This document shows positions 34,011 through 57,984 of a DNA stretch of 64,000 nucleotides, one piece after another. This DNA is from Strongyloides papillosus (Eukaryota; Nematoda; Chromadorea; Rhabditida; Strongyloididae): positions 1,225,095 to 1,289,094 of the forward strand of contig SRSI01000038.1 in assembly GCA_005656395.1 (NCBI GenBank). Reading direction: 5' to 3'. Within the stretch, counting starts at the first letter, position 1, and every line of letters begins with the position of its first letter. The notes below the pieces were generated by a model that was not told where the DNA came from, did no database searches, and worked only from the letters and a program-made list of their open reading frames with translations. Position numbers and translations under genes: made by a program.

Positions 34011-34187
34011 TGTAACGCCCCCAGAAGGCGTTATCAAGAAAACTCTATAAATACCAAACATAAATTCATTTTTAATGTATATGTAAAAGATAAGATACAT
34101 TGTGAACACCTATTAATAAAAAGTTATTTTATATATTTATACTTTACTATATCACCCGAGGATAGCACCTCGTTAAAAAAGCTTATA
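34011..34187 (+). repeat. 5' LTR of the 12.2-kb element
   Basis: 177 bp, TGTAACGCCCCC ... AAAGCTTATA, identical in length and, as far as I can read, in sequence to 46020-46196. It ends in TA rather than the usual CA and is followed directly by the primer site. Confidence 0.93.
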
Positions 34188-34202
34188 TGGAGGTTCCACC
34201 GA
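34188..34202 (+). promoter_or_regulatory. Primer binding site for tRNA-Gln
   Basis: TGGAGGTTCCACCGA is complementary to the 3' end of the tRNA-Gln encoded at 50616 (TCGGTGGAACCT plus CCA), 15 of 15 positions, starting at the first base after the LTR. Confidence 0.93.
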
Positions 34203-34662: not shown

Positions 34663-36951
34663 ATGTCTCTTCGTAGTAGCAGCACGCCGGTAAAGGCAAA
34701 CAATCGTTTGGGTAATGATTCAAACGATTTGGTACCTGGAGTACCACTCTTCAATGCTTTTAAACAAGCCGAGCTAGGCCTCTCCAAGGATGCCCAGCAC
34801 CCCTTTCTTGCTCATTCACGAGCCGAGCTAGGCCTCTCCAAGGATGCCCGGCACCCATTTCTTGCTCATTCACGAGCCGAGCTAGGCCTCTCCAAGGATG
34901 CCCAGCACCCTCTTTTTGCTCACTTACGAGCCGAGCCAGGCCTCTCCGAGGAAGCCAGGCAAACCTTAATGTCCTCAATGACATCTCCAGAGGCAAGTGC
35001 GCCACCATATGGAGATAGTCTCGAAGGCACCAATGTTTTTGCTTCTTCTAATAAAGGTAGCAAAATAAGATCTAGTTTCAATAACTTGATCAATAAGATT
35101 ACCAATCCGGTAACGTCTAAATCTGCAATGGAATCTACAATTCCGTTGAATAGAACTAAAAGACAAGTCGATCTTGACAATGTTGTCAAATTAATACTTG
35201 ATGAACTTAAAAGTGATCAAGTTGAAACCTTAAAATATAGTCCCAGTGACTATGATGGTTTACTTCAAAGACAGAAGGCCAGAATGACCAAACTATTACA
35301 AGATTTGGGTTCTGATGCCATCGTCGATTTACCAGATGTACGTGCACAAGTTAGTGACAATCTGGGTTCAACAAGAAGCTATAATGCTTTATTTGATATG
35401 GTCCTCCGTGCGAAATCGCATGGGGCTTTTTATCAGTTTAAGGGTAAGTCTCTTACTAGCTTTACACTTTTTATAAGTGATTGCATGACGGCTATAAGAC
35501 AATTAGCCATCACTGATGACGAAATCCCTATGCTTGATCGCATAGCAGGACGTCACATTGACTATCTTATACCAAGAGATAGTAAAATAGCACATGCTCG
35601 ACACATAGCTGTCGAGAGAAAGTCCGATGCCACTAAAGGACATAAACAATATGATTTCACATTGTCTGAAATCTTAAACGACATCAAGATGGTACTTGAA
35701 AGTCAAGGCATGAATCGCCTAGAGCAATTTAATGCTCTTCCACCAATGGAGAATGCTATGGATGTTTCCACATTCGCCAAGAAATTTAATGATTATCTTC
35801 GTAGAAGATTTGCTACTAATCAGCCTTCAGAGTTCCTGAAGGACAAACCTGATCTGAGACGTGAACAATTTTACTTGTTCACAAGAGGATTGCATCCAAT
35901 CCTCCGGGAAAATAATTCCACAAAAAACCTTTATGAATTGCAATATGATGAATTCATAGCCACATACGTAGACACACAGCTACGTTTCCAATCTAAATTA
36001 AATAAAGCTTCACAGAAAGTTAATAATAATCATAACAATAGTTATAAGCATAATAACAAGCACATAAATAAACATAATAATGTGTCAAACAATAAACAAT
36101 CGAATTTGAAATTTGATAGTACAAAGAAACCATTTGTAAAAAATAGCTCTAGCGGTTATATTAAAAATAATCACCAGTCATCATCTGGTACACATAATAA
36201 TAAGGGACATCAATCCCGATATACTGCGTCGAAACCGGCTAATAAGCCTGTAACTTCATATAATACTACTAGTTCTGGTATGAACTATAAACCTAATAAT
36301 AACCAATCATCTGGTTATAGTAAAAATAGAATAAAAACTAAACCTCAAAAACATGGTAAGGTTCATACAATTGAACCTACGCATGATGAATGCCACAATG
36401 ATGGCGAAATGAATGTAATAATGCATTCTATTAAAGAGATCAAAAATATGACCAACGACTTTAAACTTAATACATTAACAATCTGTATGTTAATGATATG
36501 TATGCTTATACCATTAGGCGGTTGTCAACCCCTTGATATTTGTCGATTTGCACCTTCTGAATTTCCTAGATTGTATCGTCAGAACAACTATGACGCTAAA
36601 AAGGCAAAACAAGTTACATTGGTATCTGTTGATACCAGATGTGTAGCTTTAGACGTGTTTGCTAGTGGCTATCGCCTTGGCAACGTCTTTGTAGACCCCG
36701 ACAGTAATGTCGAACATTACTTTGATAAAAAGGCTCCAACATTTTCTTGTGCTGGAAGCCACCTTGTCCATTTATCAGGACGCAATGAAACCTTCGCTGA
36801 AGAAGTTTCAACAGGTACACATAATGCTGATACCTCTTTAAAGAACATACGAGCTAAGCATGCTATGTATGAAGCTGGATGTGATAAACTTAGTTCTGTT
36901 TCACAGACAGTACCTATGGATCCTCATCCTACACACAAAAATTTTGTGTGA
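34663..36951 (+). CDS. Gag polyprotein with C-terminal membrane segment, cut by an insertion (762 aa)
   Basis: Residues 36-107 are four 18-residue repeats (AELGLSKDAQHPFLAHSR and variants) encoded by 54-bp tandem DNA. A helical Gag-like region (about 165-450) ends in an Asn/His/Lys-rich, probably RNA-binding stretch (450-580); no CCHC knuckle is visible. At about 603-620 a hydrophobic segment (LTICMLMICMLIPLGGC) is followed by a Cys-containing domain of about 130 residues. This would be a signal anchor, which is unusual inside Gag-Pol. The frame originally continued into the region from 38704; the last codons (HKNFV) come from the inserted element at 36932. ATG at 34663 follows a 460-nt leader. 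Confidence 0.8.
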   Translation: MSLRSSSTPVKANNRLGNDSNDLVPGVPLFNAFKQAELGLSKDAQHPFLAHSRAELGLSKDARHPFLAHSRAELGLSKDAQHPLFAHLRAEPGLSEEARQTLMSSMTSPEASAPPYGDSLEGTNVFASSNKGSKIRSSFNNLINKITNPVTSKSAMESTIPLNRTKRQVDLDNVVKLILDELKSDQVETLKYSPSDYDGLLQRQKARMTKLLQDLGSDAIVDLPDVRAQVSDNLGSTRSYNALFDMVLRAKSHGAFYQFKGKSLTSFTLFISDCMTAIRQLAITDDEIPMLDRIAGRHIDYLIPRDSKIAHARHIAVERKSDATKGHKQYDFTLSEILNDIKMVLESQGMNRLEQFNALPPMENAMDVSTFAKKFNDYLRRRFATNQPSEFLKDKPDLRREQFYLFTRGLHPILRENNSTKNLYELQYDEFIATYVDTQLRFQSKLNKASQKVNNNHNNSYKHNNKHINKHNNVSNNKQSNLKFDSTKKPFVKNSSSGYIKNNHQSSSGTHNNKGHQSRYTASKPANKPVTSYNTTSSGMNYKPNNNQSSGYSKNRIKTKPQKHGKVHTIEPTHDECHNDGEMNVIMHSIKEIKNMTNDFKLNTLTICMLMICMLIPLGGCQPLDICRFAPSEFPRLYRQNNYDAKKAKQVTLVSVDTRCVALDVFASGYRLGNVFVDPDSNVEHYFDKKAPTFSCAGSHLVHLSGRNETFAEEVSTGTHNADTSLKNIRAKHAMYEAGCDKLSSVSQTVPMDPHPTHKNFV
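34768..34983 (+). repeat. 54-bp tandem repeats in gag (4 units)
   Basis: Units starting GCCGAGCTAGGCCTCTCC at 34768, 34822 and 34876, with a diverged unit at 34930. Unit length is a multiple of three, so reading frame is kept. The first three are nearly identical, implying recent expansion. Confidence 0.9.
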
Positions 36952-37247
36952 CACAATTTTTAGTAAAATATATGACGTTTCCAAATTTAATAAAAATTTG
37001 TTTTATTCAAAAAAAATCTCTTGATTTTATGGTAATTCTACTTTTGTTTAAAAATTTTGAATAGTCAATGTTATTATAAGAAACAAGAGACGTTATAGTG
37101 ACAAAAACATATATAAAATTCTTAATAGTGACATGTTATATTTTTACATTTAAACCGATCTTAATGAACACAAAAAACAAAGTGTGATTTGTTTTTAAAA
37201 CAATGATATAATTTTCAACCTATGTCACTATTAGTAGAAACAAAATA

Positions 37248-38007
37248 CAGTCAACTCTCTCTATTAGAAACACCTCTATAAGAAACTTTCTTCTATAAGA
37301 AACCATAGTATATGGTTTCAAAACTGAAATTAAATTTTCATACATTTTTTGTTTTCTATAAGAAACAAAAAAAACCGTTGTTAGAAACTCTCTTCCTATA
37401 AGAAACCATGTAGATGATATTCTTAACATAAAATTGCTTTTTTATTTGTTGAAAAAGATGTTGAAAATCAAAAATCGTTTCCATTTCAATAGAAATATCT
37501 ATTATTTACACACTTTAGTCACATAATAGTTGATGATATAAAAACAAATAATTTAACAGGATGTAATGTAGATCAAGACATATGCTTAGAAGATGAACCA
37601 ATATATAATGATCCAGAAATTATTGCTCCATCAATTGATGAAGTTAAAAAAATTTTAATATACTAAAGCAATATTCAATATTACATGATAAATCTTCTTT
37701 AAAAGAACCATTTGAAAAATTTCAAGATAAAACATATCTCATGAAACAATCATTACCTTCTAACTTTGTTACCTAAATAAAGTCAAATTAGGATGAAAAT
37801 TATATTGAATCATTTTCAATTGCTTAATCTGGGGGATTATTTTTATTATAAACATTTAATGCACAGAATTTTAGTTTTTTTAGTGTTATTACTACATATA
37901 AGAGCTTTTAATATAGCAAATCTCTATAAGAAATCTTTTGTACATTCTCTATAAGAGACTACTAAATTTCTCGATCCCAGTATGTTTCCTATAGAGGGAG
38001 TTGACTG
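37248..38007 (+). mobile_element. 760-bp pogo/Tigger-type element nested in the insertion
   Basis: Inverted ends CAGTCAACTCTCTCTATTAG and, reversed, CAGTCAACTCCCTCTATAGG, flanked by TA. CAGT-CRACTC ends with TA duplications are typical of Tigger/pogo elements. Repeated CTATAAGAAAC motifs lie just inside both ends. Only a C-terminal transposase scrap remains. Confidence 0.8.
37532..37666 (+). pseudogene. Pogo/Tigger transposase C-terminal relic (45 codons)
   Basis: Open frame ending at TAA 37664-37666 with an acidic stretch (QDICLEDEPIYNDPEIIAPS) and then IDEVKKIL, the acidic tail followed by a short helix seen at the C terminus of Tigger-like transposases. DNA-binding and DDE domains are absent. 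It belongs to the nested element, so it is non-functional. Confidence 0.5.
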
Positions 38008-38703
38008 TATTTATAAGTTAATGTTTTAGAATTTAAAAAAAACTTTTTGTTTAGAACATCCTCCTCAATTAGACTTGGCAGCATAATTTTATTTACAAGA
38101 TCCAGTCAAACATTGTTTTCAATTTCCTCAATGGCATTATCACCATCATCATCACCCTCCTCCATTTGTATATCTTCAGCTACCCGAATTTGAGAAGATA
38201 TAATTGTTCTATGAACTTCAATTGTTTGATGTTCTTCTAACATTTTTTGTTACAAAAATACTTTAAAATATAAATCAAATGCTAATATAAGCAAGCTAAT
38301 TATATAAATTAGAATAAAAGGCTAATTTTTATGTTATTTTAATACTTTCAAGATATTTGATTAAGATACAAAATTTATTTATGTTTGTAGAAGTTATTTA
38401 TTTATGTTTGTAAATGTTATTTTTTTATGTTTATAAATGTTATTTATTAATGTTTATTTTTTAAAATTACCAAGATTTATATATTTCTAACTTATTGTGT
38501 TAAAGAAAAATTTTTTTACATATTATTTATTAAATTTTAAAAATGTTTTATTAAATTTTGCATATTGTTATAGAAAAAAAATTTATCGCTGTTTGTGACA
38601 AAAAAATACCCATGTTTTTTTAATAGTGACTGTCACTATTGCTTGTGACATATAGATTTTTTTTGAATTTTAAAATTTTTGTCACTATTAGTTTTTGTGT
38701 GTA

Positions 38704-41700
38704 GCAAAATAGTCTCATCGACTAAGGCGCCTGTTGTGATGTTAGCAGAGCGGCCACCTATTATGTAAATTGTTTCAAACGATAAAAGTGTTTCTGCTTC
38801 GAAGATTAAGGCACCAACAGATGTTAGTGCCCTTCCAAAGGCAACAAAACCTAATAATGATGCTGCCTTAAAAGCTGCATCTGTTGATAGTTTAAAAGTA
38901 TCATCAACCACATCTGGTTATCAGAAAATTAAATCTTCATTGAAAACCTGTGAAGAAGAATTAGAAAAGACGAAGACTCTCTTAAAAGAGAGTACAAGTA
39001 CTATATCCGACCTACGATCGGAAATAGAACGAATAAAGCGAGCAAATAACATGCTTTCCGAGCAACTTCGTGATTCTGAAGATCGTCATCGGACGACTTT
39101 GCGATCAATGACTGAGGAATCGGCCAAATCTCTTTCCGAAGACATAAAAACAGTCTCTAATGCTTTGACTGATGAAAATAGAATCCGCCAGGAATGTGAA
39201 GACAACTGGAAGGATGAAATAAAACGTCTTAATAGTGAGATTGAGGATTGTAATACCAAACTCAATAAGCTAAAAACGGCAAATAACGCGTTACGTGGAG
39301 AACGTGATAAAGCTAATAAAGCTTTAAAATCTTGTAATATAGATAAGGATACTTGTCTTAAAGATTTAGATGAGTTAAAATCAGACGTTAATCGTCTTAA
39401 TATAGCACTTGAGGGTAAGGACAATAAATTATCCGAAGCTACAACATTAATAGATTCTCATGAATCCCAAATAACGGTTTATAAAAACCAGGAAGCTGCC
39501 CTAACCGAACAGTTAGCTGCAATAAATAATTGTATTTCTCAATTAGAGAATACCGAATTAGAGAATGATGACGAGCAAGAGCAGAATTCATCATCCAATG
39601 TACATGCGTTAAACGAATGTATTAATAAAGAGGCACAATGCCATCTACAATTAATTAAGACACAAAGTCTAACTGATTTAACACGTACGGAGCTTACTCG
39701 TTGTGAATCACAGATTGCTGTGATAAAATCACGAGCATCCTCATCGCCGTGTCTAAACAATATTCCCACTACTGATAACAAATCAGAGAAGGGATTGTCC
39801 ATGATTGAATGGGCTAAAATAATATATCAACTACATGTTGATGAGGCAATAACAGAAATGCCTAATTCTATTGCTAGTGCATTAACATTAATCACTACAA
39901 TTTTGGTTAAATACGGTTTTAATAAAACTGCTGAAACTTTGAGAAAACGTTATGGTTCTTCTTTTAACAATGAGATCCCATACACTCATCAATTAAGGAC
40001 GATTTCTGAAGCACGACCGCTTACAAGAACTCCTATTCGAGTATCCCGTTATGGGGTAATACAGAATATTCGTAATTCTGATTCAATGGTAAAATTACCT
40101 GTGATTTCGATTACTATCGGATCAAATAAATTCGATGCACTTGTTGATACTGGTGCTTCCTTAAATGTCATTAGTCAAGATGCATTTAATCTCATACCTA
40201 GTACACATAAAACTATGGTAAAACCATCGTTAAAAGCTGCAACAGTAGCAAATAATGACAAACTCGTTTTTAGCGGGGCTTCTAGAATTTATGTAGAAGC
40301 AAATAATATACGAGAACAACTTGAATTTCACATAGTGGACAAGTTATCATATGATATAATTATTGGTATCCCTGGATTACATCGAATTTTTGGTGATGAA
40401 CTAACTATTCGATTTAATCATAGTATGCCATCTATTACTAACGTACCCGTCAAGACGGCTTCTAAGGTACGTGTTCCTCCTAGAACAACAAAAGTAATTC
40501 ATGCCGATGTACATGCAATTCCATCCCATGAAAAAATTAATTGTTTATTTGTGAGTAACCCTCGTTGGAAGGGTAGTGATCACATTATGACCTACTATCA
40601 GACAGGTCCTGTAATTGATAATAAATTTGCCGTGATTCTTCAAAATCATGGATCAAATACTGTATTAATACCCGCTAATACTGAAATTGGTAATCTACAT
40701 TCTATTGAAGAAGTAGATGATAATACTATTCGGATCTCTGGTGATGAAATAATCCCAGAAGATGCCGCTTGGGAAGATTCCTTACCCAACTATCCAGAGA
40801 GTCATGCTCCTCTTACTAGAGAGCAACTAATGGATTCCATTTCTTGGACAAATTGTACTCTTTCTCCGAAGGCGAAAGAGGTGTTACAAGATATTATATG
40901 GAATAATCGTACCGCATTTTTCGAATATGACGGAAATGCTGGTCTTTATAATGGTGATGAGCGTCTCAATATTGAGTTAGCCACATCTGAATTACCTCAA
41001 CGTATTCGGCCTGGTCGTAGGTCGAGAGAGATTGATATTGAAATTGATAAGCAGGTCGAAGACATGCTTGAAAAGGGGATGATCGAACATAGTCGATCTC
41101 CTTACCTTTCTAGAGTCGTATTAGTACGAAAGAAAGACATGAAATGGCGTTTTGTCGTCAATTTCAGAGCCATTAATAAGCTCATAAAACAACAGTCACA
41201 TCTTATCCCACGGATAGATAGATTGACTGAAGAAGCAAGTGGTCATAAGTACTACAGCGTATTTGATTTGAAACAAGGATTTCATCAAATACCTCTTGAT
41301 GAACATAGCAGGCGTATTGCTGCTTTTGTTACACATAGAGGAATTTACCAATATAAGGTAATGCCTATGGGACTTACTGGATCACCAGATAAGTTCCAAG
41401 ATATAATGGACAAAGTCCTAAGCAACATATCCGATTGCTATATCTACTTGGATGATATTCTCACTTGTTCTCAAGATGAGGAATCTCATATCCACAATAT
41501 TAATAATATTCTGTCACGTATAGCAGAATATAACATGAAAATTACTTTAAATAAGTGTCAATTTGGGCAAAAGAATGCTCAATATTTAGGGTACATCATT
41601 GATTTTGATGGTATCCATCCTAACCCTGATAAGGTTAAGGCTATCACGGATAAACGTGAACCGAAAACAGAAAAAGAGATTAAATCTTTTCTTGGTGCTG

Positions 41701-42110
41701 TGTCTTATTTTAGAAGGCACATTAAAAATTTTTCAGCATTGGCTGAACCTTTATATAGAGTTATTAACTCATATTCTTGGACATCAGAACAAGCTGATGC
41801 GTTCCAGGCCTTAAAACAGGCACTAATAAATGCTGCAGTATTGGCTCCTCCGGACCATACGGCACCATATACCATATACACCGACGCTTCATTTCAAGGC
41901 TTAGGTGCAGCTCTTACGCAAAAGGATAAACCAATTGCCTTTGCTTCGAGATCTCTGAAACCTGCAGAGAAAAATTATCCAATAATCAAATTGGAAGCTT
42001 TGGGTCTAGTTTATGCTTTACGGCAATTTAGACCATATATTTATGGTAAACATACTAAAGTAGTTACCGATCACAAGCCCTTGTTGGCTTTACTTAAAAT
42101 AAAGAGTTGA
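38704..42110 (+). pseudogene. Coiled-coil region, protease, reverse transcriptase and RNase H (Gag-Pol continued)
   Basis: Continues the Gag frame after the insertion. There is one TAA at 38766, then the frame is open to 42110 (1056 codons from 38940). The first 260 or so residues are rich in heptads of Leu/Ile with Glu/Lys (IERIKRANNMLSEQLRDSED), a long coiled coil. Retropepsin DTG (LVDTGASLNVIS) is near 40147. RT has KWRFVVNFRAINK, YSVFDLKQGFHQIPL and YLDDIL (about 41450). RNase H has YTDASFQGLGAAL and VVTDHKPLLAL. The frame ends at AGT-TGA, where a one-base shift is needed to continue into LTGILQRYQM at 42107. With the upstream insertion and stop it cannot be made as one chain. Confidence 0.9.
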
Positions 42111-43375
42111 CTGGTATTCTTCAACGATATCAGATGGCTATAATGGAATACGATATTACAATCGTATATCTTAAAGGGGAAGATAATCATGTTGCAGATT
42201 ATCTTAGTAGAACGGAATTTAATGCCGTTCTTCTGAAGGAAGGTCTCTTTGAAGACGTATTTCCTATAATGGAGAATCCAATGAATACTCCGTATGTTAT
42301 AAGTAAATTTCATAACTTTCTTAATGAAAAAGAAACAGATGTCATTAAAGATGGTGATATCAACGTCTTTTACAGAGGTAAACGACGTGTTTTTGTTCCT
42401 AAGGTGCTAAGAGAAGAGTTGTTGAGACGATTTCATAGCCATCCTTTAATAGGACAACATTTTGGTTTCGATAAACTAGCAGATAAATTCTGTCTTATAT
42501 TCTTCTGGCCTAAGATGCTTGAAGACATGAAACGTATTTGGCAAGACTGTGAGGTATGTTGGAAAGTGAAACACCAACCCTCTAATTTAGCAGCTACCAA
42601 TACTAAAACAATCCCTAAACCTGAAGGTATTTGGGAAACTTTAAATGCTGATTATATACAGCTTGAAGATCATCTTCACGTGTTAGTGATAATAGATGAA
42701 TATAGTCGTTTTGTGTATACTGCTGTTACCAAACGACAAGATCAAAATACTACACTTCTACAATTAATGAAGTGCTTTTCCACTTTTGGATTTCCCAAAG
42801 TATTACGTACAGATGGAGGATCTGGCTTTATTGGTAATAAAGTATCAGATTACCTTAAATCTGTTAATGTTACTCATTATGTGTCATCTCCACATAATCA
42901 TACTTCGAATGCTTTCGCTGAACGATTTAATCGTACAATTCGCGAAGCTATCAGAGCACAATCGGATTTATCATATACTGATGCTGTATATGCTTTAACA
43001 TATGCTTATAATCGTACAAAGCATACTTCAACAGGTTATCCACCTTGTTATTTTATTCTCAATACTGCTGATAAATTTTCAGATGAGATTGCAATTAATT
43101 CATCCCTTAGTGGTTTGAAAGATATTATACAATTCGGTCGTACCGAATTTAGTGAATCAAAGCCTAAGAGAAAAGGAAAAGTTCTTTCTCCAGGCATGGT
43201 TGTGATGAAACGTGTGTTACATAAAAAGTTAAATCACACATCACACAAAAATCAAGATATATTTGAAGGTCCTTATAAAATAATTAAGCATTTACATGCG
43301 GACACATATATCATACAAAAATGTTCTCGTACTGGTAGACTCACTGGTAGAGAAGAAAGAATTACCACTGATTGA
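42107..43375 (+). CDS. RNase H end and integrase (422 aa)
   Basis: The first 35 residues (LQRYQMAIMEYDITIVYLKG) complete RNase H. The integrase zinc-binding domain spans HSHPLIGQHFGF to CEVCWKVK (about 110-150). The DDE core has Asp in LNADY (about 181), Asp in RTDGG (about 235) and Glu in FAERFNR, 35 residues after the second Asp. The C terminus has a β-rich end (GPYKIIKHLHADTYII). It inserts element cDNA into the genome. The listed start is the first possible codon after the frameshift, not a real initiation site. Integrase itself is undamaged. Confidence 0.9.
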   Translation: MTGILQRYQMAIMEYDITIVYLKGEDNHVADYLSRTEFNAVLLKEGLFEDVFPIMENPMNTPYVISKFHNFLNEKETDVIKDGDINVFYRGKRRVFVPKVLREELLRRFHSHPLIGQHFGFDKLADKFCLIFFWPKMLEDMKRIWQDCEVCWKVKHQPSNLAATNTKTIPKPEGIWETLNADYIQLEDHLHVLVIIDEYSRFVYTAVTKRQDQNTTLLQLMKCFSTFGFPKVLRTDGGSGFIGNKVSDYLKSVNVTHYVSSPHNHTSNAFAERFNRTIREAIRAQSDLSYTDAVYALTYAYNRTKHTSTGYPPCYFILNTADKFSDEIAINSSLSGLKDIIQFGRTEFSESKPKRKGKVLSPGMVVMKRVLHKKLNHTSHKNQDIFEGPYKIIKHLHADTYIIQKCSRTGRLTGREERITTD

Positions 43376-43636
43376 CTGAAGGTTATTCCTTCACTATCCA
43401 CTACCTATGATAATACATAATTTTTGACAAATATACTGTTCTGTGCATTATGCAAATATAACAGACACAGTCATATAAAGATGTTTTCTTGACAATACTC
43501 ACTATTATCCATTTGAGAAATGGATATACATATACGTATAAATAATATTTTAAACAAAAGAAAAAAATTAATTAAAGAGACGAGTCAATTTAATATTTAT
43601 TTTTAACAAAAATGGTACAAAGTATGTTACAAATAT
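43376..43636. other. Spacer between integrase stop and the antisense gene end
   Basis: Convergent 3' ends meet here. On the minus strand AATAAA (about 43598) lies roughly 40 nt after the stop of the antisense gene and can serve as its poly(A) signal. Confidence 0.45.
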
Positions 43637-44728
43637 TTAGGCAAATACGCTTGTCCATTGTCCCAATCTCCATACGTCGGATAACTCAGCATAAACCATC
43701 GTTGCTGGACCACCTTGACAATTTGGAGGACGGGATATAACGTAGGGATTGCTACGTCTTCCAAAAACAGTGCGAAAATCGCACTTGCACTGCTTATTGA
43801 AGCAGATGACTACCTTGATTGATGGTGGTATAGCCACCTTCTTCAGGAATTTACAGTTTGAGTATGCAACTCCTTTTAGTGCAGGAAAATGGCGCAACAT
43901 GCCTCTTTCTGCAGGGGGTGAATTCCACCATAAGAATTCCACTGTGTTGCATGCTACGAACTTCATGTTTGTACATGAAGATTTTAAATTAATTATCAAT
44001 ATTTTGGTATTGATAGAATTAAACAGAGGTTGTTGCCCCTCTGTGAACGCATTCAACTCTATGAGTTCCCAGCTTCTGCTGGATAATGTTGTTACCAGTT
44101 TCTCATGCTGGTTTGATACGTAGGCTTTTATTCTACCTACATTGGCCATTAATCTGCGGCCAGTTGGAAGATCAACTATTTCCCTGTTGATTATCTTTCC
44201 TCTCTTCATTTCCTTGTCACTCAATAAGGCAACTATTGGAACGCAAATATTCTTTACCTTTATCCCACGATGTGGGATCCCTGGCAATGCATAATTGGTC
44301 AATAAAGTAGGCACTTCACTATTGTGCATTGCTTTCACCAAATCTTCAAAGGAAAACAGCTCCTTCGGCTGTTTCTTGGTTCCTGACTTTTTTCCGTCAG
44401 TATTTTTCTTTTTCCCATCCTTGGGGAATCGATCTTCAGGAGACTTCTTGTCTCTTGGTGGCCCTTTAGAGTCATCTTCCTTTTCCTTCTCATTTTTGGA
44501 AGGATTGTTACTAGCTGACTTCTCTTCTTCCTTCTTATTGTTGGAAGATTGAGTTACAGCGTCCCCTTCGCCTGGTACTTTTGCTCCAGTTGGTAGTATA
44601 CCGGAGTCTTGTCCTTCAACAATGGTTGATGGTGCATCAGGTACTTTGGTAGTTTTTTTCTCCAAATTAGAATTAGATTCCTCGCCAGGAGGTGTTTTTA
44701 ATAAATCTTCTTCGTCATGACTGTTCAT
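43637..44728 (-). CDS. Antisense accessory gene A of the 12.2-kb retrotransposon (363 aa)
   Basis: Runs opposite to gag-pol, between integrase and the 3' LTR. I chose the ATG at 44728 (MNSHDEEDLLKTPPGEESN) because the 49 codons upstream look like an untranslated leader; the frame itself opens at 44875. Residues 1-125 are low-complexity and highly charged (Glu/Lys/Ser/Pro, e.g. KNEKEKEDDSKGPPRDKKSP), probably disordered. From about 130 to the end is a folded-looking domain with regularly spaced aliphatic residues and cysteines (TKILIINLKSSCTNMKFVAC, ALKGVAYSNCKFLKKVAIPP), faintly leucine-rich-repeat-like. No signal peptide, membrane segment or known motif. No stops or frameshifts although gag-pol has decayed, which suggests coding use. 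Function unknown. Confidence 0.7.
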   Translation of the reverse strand: MNSHDEEDLLKTPPGEESNSNLEKKTTKVPDAPSTIVEGQDSGILPTGAKVPGEGDAVTQSSNNKKEEEKSASNNPSKNEKEKEDDSKGPPRDKKSPEDRFPKDGKKKNTDGKKSGTKKQPKELFSFEDLVKAMHNSEVPTLLTNYALPGIPHRGIKVKNICVPIVALLSDKEMKRGKIINREIVDLPTGRRLMANVGRIKAYVSNQHEKLVTTLSSRSWELIELNAFTEGQQPLFNSINTKILIINLKSSCTNMKFVACNTVEFLWWNSPPAERGMLRHFPALKGVAYSNCKFLKKVAIPPSIKVVICFNKQCKCDFRTVFGRRSNPYVISRPPNCQGGPATMVYAELSDVWRLGQWTSVFA

Positions 44729-44875
44729 GATGAACAAAATGGTACTTGTTACCTCAATTTGGTGTATTTTATACTCTCTTACGACTAGACGTCTGAAAAG
44801 GGGAGGACATACACGCAATTTTGCAACAAGTGACACACTTTGCAATGAAAAAAATAAATAATATTGTATATGCAC

Positions 44876-45355
44876 CAGACATATACAAAGGAAAGTCCAA
44901 TTAAGGATAAAATAATCACTTAATCAAAAGTACGCAACAATAATTGTATCAATAAGTTATTTTAAAATAACTAAATAAAAAGTATCTTTTAAATAAAGTA
45001 CTTAGTTATACAATGTCGTGTAGACAAAGTTATCAACACTAAAGGATATGAAAATATCTAATACGTTGATATTATAATATTTACAAAATAAGTAAATATC
45101 ATTCTTAGTATCCAACGCTAGGAATATCAGGTCAAAAATAATTGACAAAACAAAAACATTACATACTTTTTATAAATAAAAAGGTACATAGTAAAAGGAT
45201 TATAAAAACATCCTTATATAAAATAAGAGAATAACACGTCATATAAGAAATGATCGTGAACAATAAAAGAGATTAACAAAAAAAGAAAGTTAAACAAAAG
45301 TATAAAACAAATTTATTAAATAAATTTTATTAACAATAAATAAAATTAAAAATTG
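44876..45355. other. Spacer between the two antisense genes
   Basis: A+T-rich. On the minus strand this is the 3' flank of gene B, with AATAAA shortly after its stop, and the promoter region of gene A. Confidence 0.45.
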
Positions 45356-45758
45356 TTAATTAAACCTCCGTAAAGGAGGTTGGAAGTGGAGGTGGTGATG
45401 GTGGTGGTGTTGGTGGTGCTCCTGGGGCACCATTCTCCTCATCATAGTTGGTGGAGCCACAGTGGGGGCAAGGGCCTTCTTGGAGGCTTTCGCCCATCTC
45501 TTAACCCTCCGATATCCAGCTGCCACTAACATTAGAACAAGGAATTCTAACAATGGACGGCAGTATCCCATAATTTGAATGGCCAATAAGGCCCAGGCAG
45601 TCATTTCTCCCTTGAATGCTCCAGAGACTCCAGCAGCAGTAGTGGTTGTTGGGGCAGGTGTTGTTGGTTGGTAGCCATGGCGGCTACACAATTCTCTATA
45701 ATTGCTAAAATAAAACAATAAATAGTCCAGACAAAAATCAAACTTACATTGCTGGCAT
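45356..45758 (-). CDS. Antisense accessory gene B, spliced single-pass membrane protein (119 aa)
   Basis: Two exons on the minus strand: 45758-45748 (MPA plus two bases) and 45704-45356. The 43-nt intron has GTAAGT at the donor and TTTTATTTTAG at the acceptor; the join restores one frame of 120 codons including stop. The N part is Pro/Thr-rich (YQPTTPAPTTTTAAG). A hydrophobic stretch (AWALLAIQIMGYCRPLLEFLVLMLVAAGY) spans the membrane once or as a hairpin, followed by a basic region (RRVKRWAKASKK) and a His-rich tail. A TATA-like sequence (TATATATATAG) lies 60 bp upstream. It is antisense to the retroelement, so its promoter is independent of the LTR. No family recognised. Confidence 0.68.
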
Positions 45759-45828: not shown

Positions 45829-46009
45829 ATGATTTTGATGATCAACAAATTGATGGATTAAAAGAAGTCTTCAATGATCAAATACCAAAATATTACTCTC
45901 TACATTCCTTTTTTATACAATATCTAATATCAAATACCCGAACATTATTTTCAACTTCTATTACCTATTACTGAACAGAAATACATTCCCAGATCGCTAC
46001 GAAGTAGCT

Positions 46010-46019
46010 GAAAAGGGGA
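46010..46019 (+). promoter_or_regulatory. Polypurine tract of the 12.2-kb element
   Basis: GAAAAGGGGA immediately before the 3' LTR TG. Confidence 0.85.
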
Positions 46020-46196
46020 TGTAACGCCCCCAGAAGGCGTTATCAAGAAAACTCTATAAATACCAAACATAAATTCATTTTTAATGTATATGTAAAAGAT
46101 AAGATACATTGTGAACACCTATTAATAAAAAGTTATTTTATATATTTATACTTTACTATATCACCCGAGGATAGCACCTCGTTAAAAAAGCTTATA
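46020..46196 (+). repeat. 3' LTR of the 12.2-kb element
   Basis: Matches 34011-34187 base for base as read. The next bases (AATTACC) lead directly into the duplicated segment. Confidence 0.93.
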
Positions 46197-46463
46197 AATT
46201 ACCATACATTATTCAAAAAAATGTAGAATTTTGCAAAAGACCTGTCAGCTTTAATAATTACCAGTAATCTGTAAAAATATTATAAATTATTTTGGGTACC
46301 TACCATTTTTGTCTAAATATTCAGGCAAAACATACATATAAAAAAGAACTATTTTTGAAATAACAATTATTTTTTTATCTAAAAAAAATATTTCAAAATG
46401 AGAATTAATTGTTTTTTTGTTATAAAAATAATCAAATATATATTCTTTAAGACATATTAAATA

Positions 46464-46642
46464 TGTTGTAACCTTTGCTCATAGCTAAGGCTATGAGTTT
46501 AGCACCAAAATCCATTTATTTCAGTGAAGACTAAACTGTTTTATTATAAAAACATGCTATTTAAATAGATAATAATATAAATGAAATTATAATAATAACA
46601 TAATTAATTATCATATATAAATATTTATATTTAAATATTACA
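46464..46642 (-). repeat. 3' LTR of the 1950-bp element (element reads leftward)
   Basis: 179 bp. On the minus strand it begins TGTAATATTTAA, whose first bases supply the last codons and the stop of the ORF. Confidence 0.93.
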
Positions 46643-48286
46643 TCCCTCCAGTTTTGATTTGGCTTCGGCAACTAATTTATCAGACAAAGCTTGAGGTGAT
46701 AATTTTACAAAGCGAGAAGTTTTACGAGTAATACATCTTCCAGGCTCCATAATAACGTAAACAGAATTGTTGAGTTTTTGTAATACGTAGCATGGTTTCC
46801 ATTCAGCATTAATGTTGGGCTCTGATCTATAATATCCATGTAGAAAAAGTGGTATAACAGTTTCACTTTCAATAGGGGCTGTAGTATTTGATATTTCACG
46901 ATTTGTATTTTGACAGAAACATTGGGGAAGAGTATGTTTTATATTGTTTTCATCATATTTTGACACTAATTTTCTTATAGTTCTATCTGGACTTATACTA
47001 TTCACAGACCATAATTTTTGCAATTTGGATTGAAGTATAGGAGATTTTGATAATGCGTTAGTTCCCAAAATAGCATCAATCTTATTTAGCGATTTTACTA
47101 CTAACATGGGTACTAAAGTGTCTTCTACCAATAGTTCTGTTGATTCAAGAAGATGTAAGGGTTGATTCTGCACATCCCTAATTATAATACGGGGATTTTT
47201 CTTTATGATTGGTAGTGGATCCATTTGTTTCACTTTTGAGATTGTAATTAGTGAAACTTCAGCTCCTGAATCTAAGAGGCAGTTACTTTCTTTACCTTGA
47301 ATATTACATGGAACTAAATTTTCTTTACCATTTAAGACAAGACGACAAACATATGAGATTTTGTTGTCTGCATTACTATTATCTGAGGGTTTATCGCATT
47401 CGATCATATTTACTTCTTTACGAAAATCTTTTTCTATAGTTGATGGACCAGTATTCTCTTTCTTGTAGTTAAAATCACGTTGAGTTTCCTTTTTTAATGC
47501 TGCCAAAACTTTAGCCTTCAATAAGGAATTTTCTCTATTTGGTGAAAAGTAGTAGTCGAAAATTTCACCATAGCGTTGTAGTCCTTTTGCAGCAGCAAGC
47601 CAATACTTGGCAATCTCTGAATCCGATAAATAACGAAGTTCAGACAGTTCATTAATCCATCCTTGAATACGGTTGACATATTGTAATGGTGAATCTGCCT
47701 TTCTACTATTGTTGATTAATAATTGTTCCAAGATGATTTCCCTCCTTTTATTTGAAAAGTTAGGCTTGTAGTGTTCTATCCAGGCTTCAGCAAATTCTTT
47801 AAAGCTGTTGTAATCCTCAATTTTCAATGCTTTATAGGCAATGAGAGCTGATCCTGATAGATATTCCTTAAAAAGTTGATGTTGAGAAGTTGTTTCTAAA
47901 CTGCCATAACGCATTCTAAATTTGTCCAGAAATTCACGAGGATTCTTCTCATCATATTGTTGAAGAACTGGTAATTCGATTTTTTCTTTACTAAAACATC
48001 TTCCACCACCTTTCATTCGTTTCTTTAAGCATCCATATTTGTATGCGAGAGTGAAGATAAGGGGCATTTGTTCATTTAGGGTTGGACTGTCCTGTGGATT
48101 ACATGCTTTTATTTGCATCAGTAGTTTGTTCAGATCAATTTCACCTGTAGCATCACATATATCCTCCAAGAACATTCTTCGTTGTTGTGCGTCTGTATTC
48201 TCTGTTTTGATTGATTCAATCGGTGGAACCTCTATGTTGTAACCTTTGCTCATAGCTAAGGCTATGAGTTTAGCACCAAAATCCAT
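46631..48286 (-). CDS. Gag-protease with fused integrase tail, running from LTR to LTR (551 aa)
   Basis: ATG at 48286 lies inside the 5' LTR (MDFGAKLIALAMSKG); the frame crosses the primer site and the whole internal region and stops in the 3' LTR (GCNI-stop). A retrotransposon Gag domain lies at about 100-270 (REFLDKFRMRYGSLETTSQH, PLQYVNRIQGWINELSEL). A retropepsin active site is near 340 (LLDSGAEVSLIT) with ILGTNAL downstream. The end (WKPCYVLQKLNNSVYVIMEP) resembles the C-terminal region of a Pol integrase. RT, RNase H and the catalytic integrase are missing in frame, as from an internal deletion. It would package and mature particles but needs RT and integrase in trans. No stops, so probably still expressible. 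Confidence 0.88.
   Translation of the reverse strand: MDFGAKLIALAMSKGYNIEVPPIESIKTENTDAQQRRMFLEDICDATGEIDLNKLLMQIKACNPQDSPTLNEQMPLIFTLAYKYGCLKKRMKGGGRCFSKEKIELPVLQQYDEKNPREFLDKFRMRYGSLETTSQHQLFKEYLSGSALIAYKALKIEDYNSFKEFAEAWIEHYKPNFSNKRREIILEQLLINNSRKADSPLQYVNRIQGWINELSELRYLSDSEIAKYWLAAAKGLQRYGEIFDYYFSPNRENSLLKAKVLAALKKETQRDFNYKKENTGPSTIEKDFRKEVNMIECDKPSDNSNADNKISYVCRLVLNGKENLVPCNIQGKESNCLLDSGAEVSLITISKVKQMDPLPIIKKNPRIIIRDVQNQPLHLLESTELLVEDTLVPMLVVKSLNKIDAILGTNALSKSPILQSKLQKLWSVNSISPDRTIRKLVSKYDENNIKHTLPQCFCQNTNREISNTTAPIESETVIPLFLHGYYRSEPNINAEWKPCYVLQKLNNSVYVIMEPGRCITRKTSRFVKLSPQALSDKLVAEAKSKLEGCNI
48220..48234 (-). promoter_or_regulatory. tRNA-Gln primer binding site, inside the coding region
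   Basis: On the minus strand TAGAGGTTCCACCGA follows the 5' LTR directly and matches the tRNA-Gln primer (TGGAGGTTCCACCGA) at 14 of 15 positions. It encodes part of IEVPPI in the Gag ORF. Confidence 0.85.
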
Positions 48287-48413
48287 TTATTTCAGTGAAG
48301 ACTAAACTGTTTTATTATAAAAACATGCTATTTAAATAGATAATAATATAAATGAAATTATAATAATAACATAATTAATTATCATATATAAATATTTATA
48401 TTTAAATATTACA
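48235..48413 (-). repeat. 5' LTR of the 1950-bp element
   Basis: 179 bp, contains the start codon at 48286, so transcription must begin in the first 127 bp (48287-48413) of this LTR. Confidence 0.93.
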
Positions 48414-52686: not shown

Positions 52687-55600
52687 CTAAAGAGGGCTAT
52701 ATTTTATGGAGAACAAAACATTTTGATGCCTTGTAGAATTTGGTAGGATAGGCAATGTTTGCCTGAAATCACCACCACATATGATGACTTTTCCACCGAA
52801 TGGAAGATCATTTTTGCAAACTTTTTTTAGTTGCTGATCAAGATAATCAATTACATACTTACTAAGCATAGGTGCTTCATCAATTATTATTAATGAAGCT
52901 TTTTCAAGCATAGTAGTACGTAATTTATTAAGCTTGGATAGCCTAAAATTACTGTCAAATAAGGTAATTGGCACTGAAAACATAGAATGAACTGTTTGCC
53001 CATTTCTAAGAAGAGTAGCCGCAATACCTGTTGAAGCACAATTAAGTACTATCTTATCTTCAGCTCTAATCAAATAATATAACGTTGTGTAGACGAATGT
53101 CTTACCTGTTCCTGCAGGTCCTTCTAAAAAGAAGCAACGTTTATCTGAAAAATTATTAACAATGATATTCAATATCCTATTAATAAAGTTTTTCTGTTCT
53201 TCGTTAGCTGATTTTAAATTTTCCTCACCTAACCTTTTTAGAACATCTTTATCTTCAACATAGTCAATCTCTATAATATCGAAATTAACTTCAGGTAAAT
53301 CAGTATAGCCATTAAAGTTATTAGATTGTAGAACATTTCTAATATCAAAAATTGCTTGAGCTTCCGCTCTTTCTTCATTACCGTTGTATTTCATTAAGTA
53401 ATCTTCGATTAAGTAATTTTTAAACTTAATGAAGGTATCATAATGCCTTGTAAAAGATGGCCAATAGCAAATCATGAGACCGAAGTAATTACGAAGCATG
53501 TTAGGCATCGCGCTTTCACATGCTTCTTCAAACAATTCATTGTAATTGTCTTCGGTATCAAGTAAGCCTCTTGCTATAGCAGCATCTCTAAATGAGGGCC
53601 ATTGAAAACCATTAACAATTTTCAAATCACCTTCACATGTTGCTCCAGGTACATGGAGCAAAAGTTGGCGAAGTGAAAATAATTCGACATTCATAGGTGA
53701 TACAGTAAATATCCTTCCTATTGTACGCCTTTGGCGATGTCTTAATTTCCATTCTCTGGTTTTTAAGTCAAACCAATAATACTCCGGTATCTCATTATAA
53801 AGATACTTTCTAGCATTAATATCGTTTTTATTAAGATTATAAAATGCTAATAATGTAGACTTATAACCTTTATCTGCTTTGAAACAGTTATTGTTGCCAT
53901 TATTCATTTCATCAGCAACGGTGCAATCCTCATTTATCAGGTGAACTGCTAATCTTACAACAGTCCAATCTTTATAAAGTATTGGATACTCCATGATTCT
54001 CCAAACTGCTTCTGATGGTCCTACATATCTACCATCGATATGAAGTTTAACCTCATCTTTCGATTCAACGGTTTCGACCACATCCGCAGAAATTTTATCA
54101 CCATTTGATTTATGTGTATACTTAAATAAATACTTAGGACTTAAAACACTTTCACATATTTTTACATTAATATGTGAATTATATTTCAAGCTTAAATAAG
54201 GATTATATGTAACACAAAAATCGTTATTCACTTTATTACCAAATCTATCTGTAATATCTAATAAAGGATCAAATGATCTCTTAATATTAACTTTACCTTT
54301 AGAAGTGATGGAAGTTACTTTATGGTACTGTTCTGGGAATTTTTTAGTACAGACATTTTTTGCTTCATCCCAACAGGGTACTTTTGTTTTCGAAATATCA
54401 CATCTCGAATGTACCATTGTTTTCGTGACAATTTCAAAAAGACGTGGATTTTTTTCTTTATCAGGGAATTCTGCTTTAACACATTCATCTACCTGATCAG
54501 AAGTTAATCTGAAGTCTTCTTTTGAAACTTTTACCAATATATGAATATGTGGTAAAGATCTTTTTTGAAACTCAATGGTTGATTGTAGATAAACTACATT
54601 ACCCATAATTTTGTTTTCTTTCAAGTCATGTATTAAAGCATCTGATTTATGCTTAAACACTCTTGCAATCAAGTCATGGCGATCATTCGGTAGTTGCCCT
54701 GGATAAAGATTTTCTGTAATCTCTCTCCAATTTGGGTTTGTGGTCATTGTAATAAAGAAATCTGGTTTCCCAAATTTCCTAACAATGGCCATACCATCTT
54801 GATAGCCTAAATGCATGAATCTTCTTGAACCAATGTAACTGCTAAAAAGTTTAATTCTCTCACTTTTTTTTGCAGCTTCTTCATTATCTTCATCACCGAT
54901 AAGATAATCTTCAAGAAGATCTTCTATTTGTTTATTATTCTTCTGTTTAAGCTCTTTGTTAAGCTTAATAACATAATTTAGGCGATCTCTTTCTATTGCT
55001 GTGTAAGCATCAACAACAAATAGTTGAAATAATAACCCTTCATGATGTAAAGGATTAAATGATGGCCTCACAGCAATGAGATTTTGGTAATAAACCAATT
55101 TCGTTAGAGATCTTTGTTCATTACCTTTTTTATAAGTTGTTTTCTCTTTCCATCCAAAAGCTCCTGTTGGGAAGAACAATGGATATGTTGCAGGATCTTT
55201 TAAAGGACTGTAATGACTCAAAGTTTCTAATTTTCCTGTTTTATTACATAACAAAACATTATAATCAGGAACTTCTCCATCTTCACTTTGAAATATAACT
55301 GCTATTTCTGTTACCTCTGGCAAATTACGAACTCTATCATTCTTATTCGCTGGAGGTCTCAAAACCAATTTATACATTGGCACAGCTTTATTCTCATTTT
55401 TATGTTTTAGTTCTTGCTCACGAATATAATCACCAAAATGTTTATATGATAATGCTAACATATTAATTTTGGAAATTATATGAGTAAGATTACTAATAAC
55501 TGATATTTCATTAAATGCGTTAACATTTTTATTTCTAATATCTTCAGCAACATCAGGTCCGTAAAAATATAGTTGCCCATAGGACAAATTATCTTTATTT

Positions 55601-57984
55601 TCAGGTACAGCTGTGTTTATTACACGTTTAGCTTCAACATGCAACACAAATGTTGGAGGACCTGGTGTTTTAAAATCTCTTTGTTGACCGGTATAACTCG
55701 CAAAGGCAAATTTGTTATTAATTCGCCTACAATGCTTTTTAAAGTATATACTTTCCTCATCTTCACCTATAAACAAATCTTTTATAAATTTAGGAAAGTT
55801 ATTAAATAGTCTTTCATATTCTTTAACTCCCCCAAATTCACAGCATTGTTTATACTTAGATTCTTTTTCGTAGAACATTGCTTGGCAATGTTCACAGCCA
55901 GTAGAAAGAGGACCCAAATAATGCTCATCTGGAATAATTTCCTCATCTCTAGCCGGAAAAAGTTTTTGTTTTTTCAAACTCTTTCTGTTTCTTTGTCTTT
56001 TTTTTGTAGAACCATTAGCTACTTGAATTGAATCAAGAGCTTTTACAATAGAATCTACTTGAGAATTTTTATTAAAAGATACATCAGCACATTTTGTAAT
56101 GTTACTTGATAATCTTTTTATTCTTTTTGTTAATTTCTTTTTATTTGTTTCTTTTTTAGACTTATTTAAGTAGATTAAATTTACTAATAAATCATTAACT
56201 AAAGAAAATTTGTCACTACTCGTGTCTAATTTATCCCTTTTTGCAATATTTTTCAAACTTTTTGGTAAGTTTGTTTTGGATCTCAGTAATTGCACTCTTA
56301 ATTTATTAATTTCTGATTTTTTTTTGCAATTTCTTATTTTATTTTTAGTGTTATTTACTTGCTTTAATGTAGATTCAAGATCTACATTAAGCTCCATTGG
56401 ATCATTTAATATATTATTTTCAGATATATCAACTTCCATTGGCTCATTATCACTTATTGCAACATTTTTACTTACATTACTATCAATTATCTCATTTACT
56501 TTTGAAATATCTTTAGATTCTGGGTTAACAGTATCTTGTGATAATTTTTTTCGTAATCTATTAAGATGTACTTGCAATTTCTTTTTTTCATGAGTTTTTT
56601 TGCAGTTTTTAATTTTACTTTCAACTACAATTATTTCTTTTAATGTAGAGTCAATGTCTACATCAAAATCCATTAGAATTTGCGATGTTATTTTTTTACA
56701 AATATCAATCTCCATTGGTTCGTCTTTTTCTAAATCAAAACCATTTTTGAGATTATTATCAAATACCTCATTTAATTTTAAAGTTTCAATACAATTTTCT
56801 TTAACAGTATCTATAGATTTTTTTTCTAATCTATTTAACTGTACTTGTATTTTCTTTTTATCACTTAGTCTTTTACACTTATCATATCTAACTTTTAATA
56901 AAGATATTTCTTCATTTAAATTAGAGTCGACTTTTTTATTTTTATTATTTTTAGATAAATGTAAAGGTTCTTTTTTGACTATTTTTGATAGTCTACCCTT
57001 TACACTTTTTTTAGTTGTCGAAATATCAGAATTAACATCTGATATATTTTCAACACTAATGTTTATACCATTAAGATCAAATATTGAATTATTACAAACT
57101 TGATTAGCTTGTAAATGTTCAATCAAATCTCCTAATGTGTTAAACATTAGCATACATGAAACACCATTAGAGCAATATCTTCCATTTTGATCCATAGAAT
57201 GTGGATCAAATAAGAAGAATGCTCCATCATGGTGTATTATTGAAGAAGCCCTTTCATTAGCAATCAAGATTAAAAACTGATGTTCGTTTACTAATCTATT
57301 TAATGCTTGTGAAAGAGAAACGAAACCAAAAGAAATCTCGTTTCTTTTAACCTTCTTCCCTCTTCCTGTAAATGAATAGCACGAAGCTGTGCTAAACGTA
57401 ACTTTACGATTAAACAATATTGTTTCTCGTATAATGTTGGTTACTGATAAATAACCTCTACCATCAATTGAATAATTTGTACTGCGCAAATAATTAACGC
57501 TTCTTTCGTACAAAATATTTCCTTGATTAAGGACAGTGTTTATATCAACTCTAACCCAATTTAATGGTGATTTGATACATGCCATAATCAATGCTGCAGA
57601 TGACATTGCAACACATTGATTATTCTGTCCCAAAGCTGCTTGACACATATCGGCCCGCAAAATTTTACAAAAAGTTGCACTATTGGAATTTATTGGCACG
57701 TAATCATTTTGAATTACCATGCCTCCAGCACAACTTTTTTTATTTTTTATAGCTTTAACCAAATCATCGGCTTGACTATTATTTCTAATGGTTATCGAAT
57801 AAATGATTCCATTAGTATTAAGAATGTATGACACACAAATGTCTTCATCCAAAATAATGACATGCTTCGAATTAATGAAATCATGTCTAAAATTATGATT
57901 TACTGAATCAGTAGAATCACAAATTAAAGTTTTTGGAATGTCAATTTTATTAACTTTTTTCAATAAATTGTTGACGAATTCCAT
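52687..57984 (-). CDS. Helitron peptidase-Rep-helicase protein, N-terminal 1765 aa
   Basis: Residues about 105-300 look like a cysteine peptidase of the herpesvirus tegument (Herpes_teg_N) type: NNQCVAMSS (C124 as nucleophile) and LFDPHS (D260, H262). Residues 340-620 are Lys/Asn-rich with three diverged repeats carrying KIxNCKK and PMEVDI motifs. The Helitron-like N-terminal domain follows ([14 protein letters not shown], near 715). The HUH nuclease is near 1145 ([10 protein letters not shown]), with YLFKYTHK near 1288 holding the tyrosines that nick and join DNA. The Pif1-type helicase has GPAGTGKT (1622-1629), IIIDEAPM (about 1700) and [10 protein letters not shown] (about 1738). It nicks, unwinds and pastes the element by rolling-circle transfer. 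ATG at 57984 is the first in frame. The chain ends at a TAG in the middle of the helicase. Confidence 0.9.

What the first reader, a model, noticed from the sequence alone, without database searches (positions are those of the whole stretch)
43637..45758. Two antisense genes, one spliced, inside a Gypsy-type retrotransposon
Both lie between integrase and the 3' LTR on the strand opposite to gag-pol. Gene B has a canonical 43-nt intron, impossible to use in the genomic-sense RNA, so it does not disturb reverse transcription. Gene A is intact over 363 codons while gag-pol has decayed. One encodes a charged-plus-folded protein and the other a membrane protein. Antisense ORFs in the 3' region of LTR elements are known in some lineages, but these products are unfamiliar. 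They could be regulators, envelope-like factors or a small RNA-binding pair.
Basis: partly seen in the sequence, partly recalled or inferred. Interest (0 to 1): 0.82.

Follow-up and report, generated by a model that had tools for sequence, protein, structure and literature searches.

The report
Antisense gene pair in worm retrotransposon
A jumping gene of a parasitic roundworm carries two extra genes written backwards relative to its own machinery, one of them interrupted by an intron; the larger one is kept by natural selection and appears to be exchanged between related jumping genes, a layout so far described mainly from plants and with unknown purpose.

Summary
The window lies in a Strongyloides genome (S. 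papillosus or very close). Between integrase and 3' LTR of a Ty3/Gypsy element lie two genes antisense to gag-pol. Gene A (363 codons) is under purifying selection (dN/dS 0.14-0.49 in 20 of 21 pairs). Of 60 loci matching A or its more distant look-alikes, 41 have a scored integrase hit just upstream; 40 of the 41 lie antisense to it. Gene B has an intron at the same place in 7 of 7 copies (43 or 48 nt; one has lost its AG). Near-identical elements (integrase dS 0.07-0.09) carry A genes with dS about 1.2 between conserved flanks, so A behaves as an exchangeable cassette. Recent copies lacking A, B or both exist, so neither is needed in cis. A's C-terminal half is modelled, with modest confidence, as leucine-rich-repeat-like; B is small and probably membrane-bound. 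Most likely: antisense accessory proteins acting in trans, like the antisense ORFs (aORF-3R) of plant Gypsy elements; function is inferred and transcription not shown. New variant of a known kind. In this copy B's last third is out of frame and gag-pol has two lesions.

The parts
34011..34187 (+). 5' LTR (TGTAACGC...AGCTTATA), followed at 34188 by a PBS-like TGG
   Evidence: identical 177-nt direct repeat; sequence
34663..36951 (+). gag part of a gag-pol frame; its last codons lie in the insert
   Evidence: open frame; 88-97% aa identity to L017-L027; no Pfam hit
36932..38701 (.). insert with terminal inverted repeats flanked by TA (Tc1/mariner-like, label recalled), interrupts gag-pol
   Evidence: inverted repeat I1; gag and pol lie close together in sister copies
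38940..42110 (+). protease-RT-RNase H
   Evidence: Pfam RVP, RVT_1, RT_RNaseH
42107..43375 (+). integrase, out of frame with the preceding part in this copy
   Evidence: Pfam Integrase_H2C2, rve
43605..43618 (+). short repeat on one side of gene A; a near copy at 44733-44745
   Evidence: window 2, each of 8 A-less copies 1, the three copies with a diverged A 0
43637..44728 (-). gene A: 363 codons; charged low-confidence N-terminus, LRR-like C-terminal half
44738..44845 (.). conserved block with internal polypurine CTGAAAAGGGGA (44793-44804); antisense it reads CCCCTTTTCAG, like a nematode 3' splice acceptor, 71 nt before gene A's ATG
   Evidence: GTCTGAAAAGGGGA in 12 of 12 aligned copies
45356..45704 (-). 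gene B exon 2; last third out of frame relative to three other copies
45705..45747 (-). gene B intron, 43 nt
45748..45758 (-). gene B exon 1
46008..46019 (+). LTR-adjacent polypurine tract
46020..46196 (+). 3' LTR

Best explanation
The 3' region of this Strongyloides Ty3/Gypsy element carries an antisense accessory gene pair. SHOWN from sequence: both look coding, A under long-term purifying selection, B with a conserved intron; A is found in very diverged versions within otherwise near-identical elements; either gene can be lost. INFERRED: they are transcribed from a promoter inside the 3' part of the element, reading away from the 3' LTR, as mRNAs separate from the genomic RNA; the conserved TTTTCAG before A is where its mRNA is joined to a leader (trans- or cis-splicing). 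Because the intron can only be removed from antisense RNA, the genomic RNA needs no special splice or export control for it. INFERRED: the products act in trans, which is why recent copies without A or B exist. A would be a protein-binding adaptor (charged tail plus LRR-like domain) that modulates the element's own cycle or the host's silencing of it, and B a small membrane-anchored partner.
For: Selection on A: dN/dS 0.14-0.49 in 20 of 21 close pairs (the other, L022/L027, nearly identical, 1.14 with a wide interval; open pieces of two broken copies included); 0.12-0.16 in the three pairs within the distant group; third-position excess. Orientation: 60 unique A-like loci of types I-III pooled: 40 antisense to an integrase within 2.5 kb, 1 same strand at 1.7 kb, 19 with no scored integrase hit. 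Same order integrase - A - internal polypurine - small hydrophobic gene B' - LTR polypurine in three elements with about 65% identical integrase (L033-L035). Spliced B and B' share, by eye, a 15-residue N-terminal pattern (Y.ELC...G[YF]) that B has only after splicing. B' pN/pS 0.12 (one pair). Exchange: W vs L022/L024/L027 integrase dS 0.067/0.092/0.087; gag dS 0.073 and PR-RT dS 0.052 for L022; A dS 1.18 (L022) and 1.19 (L027); W vs L027 nucleotide identity: A 69%, next block 97%, A-B spacer 96%, B exon 2 97%. Loss: 8 of 12 aligned copies lack A; 7 of these 8 were recent by LTR pairs (6 identical, 1 with 177 of 180 columns) and carry 4-bp target duplications.
Confidence: 0.72

Rival explanations
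1. The antisense RNA, not protein, is what matters: it pairs with the genomic RNA and feeds or dampens small-RNA silencing; the frames are by-products.
For: Small RNAs of S. ratti are predicted to target LTR gypsy elements (passages of PMC9203780); antisense regulatory RNAs of LTR elements are discussed for plants and Drosophila (PMC7264820, parts 1-2 of 3).
Against: Protein-level constraint on A over near-saturated silent divergence; intron length change with exon frame kept.
Confidence: 0.07
2. A is a host gene trapped or domesticated rather than an element gene; the element copies are secondary.
For: Two relic loci without a gag or RT match (L028, L029) keep an open 329-codon A that is 97.0% identical with no indels, while the two flanks are 85.8% and 94.1% identical, dN/dS 0.14.
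Against: 40 of 60 A-like loci sit right after an integrase in antisense; database homologues were found only in Strongyloides.
Confidence: 0.08
3. A or B is an envelope-like entry or budding protein.
For: Position between pol and 3' LTR; B hydrophobic; an antisense ORF of a distant element ends in PPPYSV, a budding-motif-like string (motif recalled).
Against: [quoted passage not shown] B is only 119 residues; A's models resemble LRR proteins best.
Confidence: 0.08
4. The antisense genes of the more distant element groups (types II and III) are independent acquisitions, so the pair is not ancient beyond type I.
For: Profile comparison of type I with types II/III is weak: probability 22%, P 0.001 over 65 columns; 4% with type II alone. 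5 of 8 further element groups sampled (L040, L043-L046) showed no antisense ORF of 130 codons or more.
Against: Same place and antisense orientation; the C-x-C region aligns in the expected order; types II and III are related to each other (E 1e-8).
Confidence: 0.35

Closest known systems
Antisense additional ORFs (aORF-3R) of plant Ty3/Gypsy elements: Grande gene23, RIRE2, Retand TRP28 ORF, PvRetro13; also Boty of the fungus Botrytis (PMC7264820, parts 1-2 of 3; PMC11963269, passages)
   Same: [quoted passage not shown] own promoter reported for Grande.
   Different: Animal (nematode) host; two antisense genes, one with an intron; product LRR-like, no TRP28 or SMC match in Pfam; A exchanged between near-identical elements.
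CERV of C. elegans Cer1 (PMC10309623: abstract, outline and two passages)
   Same: Accessory protein of a nematode LTR element expressed from a spliced RNA; nuclear factor needed for genomic RNA export.
   Different: CERV exons 1-3 and 5 share the gag-pol reading frame, so it is sense; A/B are antisense. Sequence relation was not tested.
Antisense viral genes HBZ of HTLV-1 and ASP of HIV-1 (recalled; an HTLV antisense promoter in the 3' LTR is mentioned in PMC7264820)
   Same: Antisense genes towards the 3' side of a retroelement; HBZ is spliced (recalled).
   Different: No sequence comparison made; here both genes lie wholly between integrase and the 3' LTR.
ORF3 modules of bdelloid rotifer LTR elements (PMC5408684, passages)
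   Same: Accessory ORFs shared between unlike elements, modular exchange, some TM proteins.
   Different: No passage I saw says those ORFs are antisense; products are esterase, exonuclease, env, TM, coiled coil.

Membership tests
Ty3/Gypsy LTR retrotransposon | Two LTRs around gag and pol with order PR-RT-RNaseH-INT | tested here: met
Ty3/Gypsy LTR retrotransposon | Short target-site duplication | tested here: met
   4-bp duplication in 8 of 10 copies examined; not in the window copy nor L026
Ty3/Gypsy LTR retrotransposon | PBS and PPT | tested here: inconclusive
   polypurine tract next to 3' LTR seen; TGG after 5' LTR seen but not matched to a tRNA
aORF-3R (antisense ORF between pol and 3' LTR) | Location and antisense orientation, in many copies | tested here: met
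   40 of 60 A-like loci antisense to a neighbouring integrase, 1 same strand, 19 without scored integrase
aORF-3R (antisense ORF between pol and 3' LTR) | Protein-level conservation | tested here: met
aORF-3R (antisense ORF between pol and 3' LTR) | Antisense transcript from its own promoter | not testable with these tools
   no RNA data
Leucine-rich-repeat proteins | LRR sequence family match | tested here: not met
   no Pfam LRR family listed for 19 members at E up to 5
Leucine-rich-repeat proteins | LRR solenoid fold | tested here: inconclusive
   [not shown]
Retroviral/errantiviral envelope | Sense orientation | tested here: not met
   antisense
Retroviral/errantiviral envelope | Signal peptide, fusion peptide, TM anchor | not tested
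   only a hydropathy scan of B was made
CERV-type export factor | Exons in the gag-pol sense frame | tested here: not met
   A and B are antisense

The most novel reading that the evidence does not exclude
A is an ancient, rapidly diversified antisense anti-silencing factor: an LRR-type adaptor that recognises a host defence component (for example Argonaute or a chromatin silencer), swapped as a cassette among elements of the same genome because hosts adapt to each version, while defective copies lacking A and B are mobilised in trans.
Probability: 0.15. Interest if true: 0.85.

Novelty: new variant of a known kind. Interest (0 to 1): 0.6.

Why it matters
Antisense accessory genes of Gypsy elements are described from plants and a fungus but have no known function. 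A worm system with many young copies, natural A-minus and B-minus variants, diverged cassettes on one backbone and an intron that marks antisense RNA lets their expression and role be tested directly, and it shows how an element can carry a spliced gene without endangering its unspliced genomic RNA.

Tried and rejected
Chance open frame: rejected by selection and recurrence. Gene insertion in one copy only: rejected by recurrence. B starting at an inner ATG without intron: possible, less likely, as the N-terminal pattern shared with B' exists in B only after splicing. UniProt names on homologues (DUF4283, SPOC, Mab-21, Nop, THAP, ankyrin and others) contradict each other and the listed proteins carry no precomputed Pfam domain, so I ignored them. 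P0014, a public gene model joining B' to A, has no convincing donor in L033 (by eye); taken as a prediction artefact. F-box at A's helical start considered by eye; no such Pfam hit. PDB sequence search with A: nothing below E 0.6. The integrase search scored only 99 of 466 candidates, so neighbours are undercounted. Homology of type I with types II/III not proven. Short hydrophobic antisense ORFs in distant elements (L042, L045-L047) are tentative: AT-rich DNA yields hydrophobic frames by chance, though their GC (0.35-0.40) exceeds that of each flank measured (0.21-0.35). Of eight further element groups (L040-L047) three had an A-like antisense gene, five had not. LTRs of 177 nt date insertions only coarsely. 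Absence from print rests on searches and 99 of an open-licence library, judged by titles and abstract beginnings; two papers listed there were checked further by passages and hold no such report in them (PMC8220671, antisense ORFs mentioned only in its introduction; PMC10676819).

Full report
WHERE IT IS. The window is part of a 58.2-Mb assembly in 79 contigs. Homologues of gene A among 5.8 billion proteins are all Strongyloides: 7 hits, 4 S. papillosus and 3 S. venezuelensis; 12 of 12 hits with a profile; 8 of 8, all S. papillosus, for the type II/III profile (only 7,996 candidates scored). P0015 is 99% identical over its full length to an A-like gene of this genome, L049, so the host is S. 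papillosus or very close.

THE ELEMENT. Two identical 177-nt LTRs (34011-34187, 46020-46196) bound gag, protease-RT-RNase H and integrase on the + strand. A ~1.77-kb insert flanked by TA and inverted repeats sits in gag-pol, and the integrase part is out of frame with the RT part. Some sister copies have gag-pol in one frame of about 2,330-2,348 codons.

GENE A. The antisense frame 44728-43637 has a lysine/glutamate-rich N-terminus (residues 1-120 under pLDDT 50) and a C-terminal half with predicted structure. Genome-wide the window's A finds 22 matching stretches, the distant A of L033 28, and type II and III queries 31 and 37 (the lists overlap). Merged, that is 60 loci: 40 antisense to an integrase hit within 2.5 kb, 1 on the same strand 1.7 kb away, 19 without a scored integrase. 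dN/dS (Nei-Gojobori) is 0.14-0.49 in 20 of 21 pairs; the exception is the nearly identical pair L022/L027, 1.14, bootstrap 0-2.25. Between W and the distant A genes silent sites are saturated. Differences at codon positions 1/2/3 are 114/64/152 for W-L022.

GENE B. Spliced, W reads MPAINYRELCSRHGYQ..., with a hydrophobic stretch at about residues 39-68 and basic residues after it. The intron is at the same place in 7 of 7 copies that keep the 5' end; 6 of 7 keep GT...AG; 43 nt in 4 copies, 48 nt in 3; reading through it stops at once. In the elements with about 65% identical integrase a small gene B' at the same place begins MAPSTYTELCQSLGF, matching spliced B in the spacing of Y, E, L, C, G and a final aromatic, without an intron there (by eye). 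B' pN/pS is 0.12 in the one pair computed. For B, 5 pairs of copies give pN/pS 0.05-0.63 from few changes and one pair is identical. In W the last third of B reads in another frame than in L019, L020 and L027.

CASSETTE EXCHANGE. W against L022, L024 and L027: integrase dS 0.067, 0.092, 0.087; against L022 gag dS 0.073 and PR-RT dS 0.052. Gene A dS is 1.18 (L022) and 1.19 (L027). Along W-L027 nucleotide identity runs: integrase-A spacer 70%, A 69%, next block 97%, A-B spacer 96%, B exon 2 97%, B-LTR spacer 75%, LTR 81%. Such a patchwork needs recombination, most simply template switching between co-packaged RNAs (established for retroelements; inferred here). A wider case: at C1:1185934 a type II A gene follows integrase pieces 87-90% identical to W's.

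LOSS. Of 12 aligned copies, 4 have A (W, L022, L024, L027), 4 have full-length B (W, L019, L020, L027), 2 have both, 3 have a truncated B and no A (L017, L018, L026), 3 have neither (L021, L023, L025). A short repeat flanks A twice in W, occurs once in each of the 8 A-less copies and not in the three copies with the diverged A, as expected of a jump or deletion between repeats in a W-like ancestor. LTR pairs are identical in 8 of 10 copies examined, 177 of 180 columns in L025 and mismatched in L026 (140 of 183), and 8 of 10 have a 4-bp target duplication: young insertions exist with and without A or B, so neither is needed in cis.

INTERNAL POLYPURINE BLOCK. A block of about 108 nt beside A's start is kept in 12 of 12 aligned copies, each with GTCTGAAAAGGGGA, and is found at 21 places in the genome. 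CTGAAAAGGGGA also forms the LTR-adjacent tract in 10 of the 12. In the distant group (L033-L035, L037-L039) the internal copy keeps GTCTGAAAAGGGGA while the LTR-adjacent tract reads GTAG or GCAG before AAAAGGGGA, so there the letters that make TTTTCAG on the antisense strand are kept only inside. TTTTCAG lies 71-206 nt before the ATG in 4 of 4 type I lineages, against about 5% of shuffles each, but in 0 of 4 type II genes (L042 has TTTCAG at 39 nt, L051 TTTTAG at 34; for L049-L051 under 180 nt upstream were held). I read it as a splice acceptor for A, possibly doubling as a second plus-strand primer; both are inference.

DEPTH. Further elements carry antisense A-like genes at the same place: L041, L042, L047, L050-L052 with integrase 45-51% identical, and L049 with integrase 87-90% identical; open stretches run from 230 (fragment) to 404 codons. 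Of the eight further groups sampled (L040-L047), three have one and five (L040, L043-L046) do not. Types II and III are mutually homologous (L042-L041 E 1e-8); type I against them is suggestive only (probability 22%, P 0.001, the C-x-C region aligned in order).

KNOWN OR NEW. [quoted passage not shown] Function is unknown there too. In nematodes, Cer1's CERV is a spliced accessory protein but mostly in the gag-pol frame (PMC10309623, abstract and passages). My searches, judged by titles and abstract beginnings plus the passages named, showed no report of antisense genes in a nematode LTR element; the library is open-licence only. I therefore rate it a new variant of a known kind.

Noticed in passing
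L028:2506-3495 and L029:6088-7077: Two relic loci with no gag or RT match keep an open 329-codon A that is 97.0% identical without indels while flanks are 85.8% and 94.1% identical: possible retention for the host, or gene conversion.
   Followed up: partly
L037, L038, L039 and further places: A short antisense A of about 141 codons joins the acidic N-terminus to the last 75 residues; matches to that C-terminal stretch recur after integrase at 8 places, 7 of them in a 149-codon open frame, so a shortened A seems to have spread itself.
   Followed up: partly
L044, L045, L046 (just after integrase): In elements with 38-40% identical integrase the pol C-terminus carries repeated GRPRK-type strings that look like AT-hooks (motif recalled).
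   Followed up: no
L042 antisense about 2389-2099: Antisense ORF near the LTR with one hydrophobic stretch, no ATG at its start (spliced start possible), ending PPPYSV.
   Followed up: no
46462-48413: 181-nt identical direct repeats around an antisense 551-codon ORF with weak gag-protease matches: a short LTR-like element next to the finding.
   Followed up: no
37243-38012: Inverted repeats around ACAGTCAACTCTCTC inside the gag-pol insert: a second, pogo-like element may be nested in it (label recalled).
   Followed up: no
52687-57984: 1,765-codon antisense ORF with Helitron_like_N and PIF1 helicase matches.
   Followed up: no
15319-17607: 762-codon ORF with SAP domain, protease and RT matches and a weak zinc knuckle, another retroelement.
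   Followed up: no
L026: LTR pair of unlike sequence (5' 80%, 3' 97% to the window's): recombinant between element lineages.
   Followed up: partly
window 1-64000: ARAGORN (bacterial code) lists 11 tRNA genes in 64 kb.
   Followed up: no
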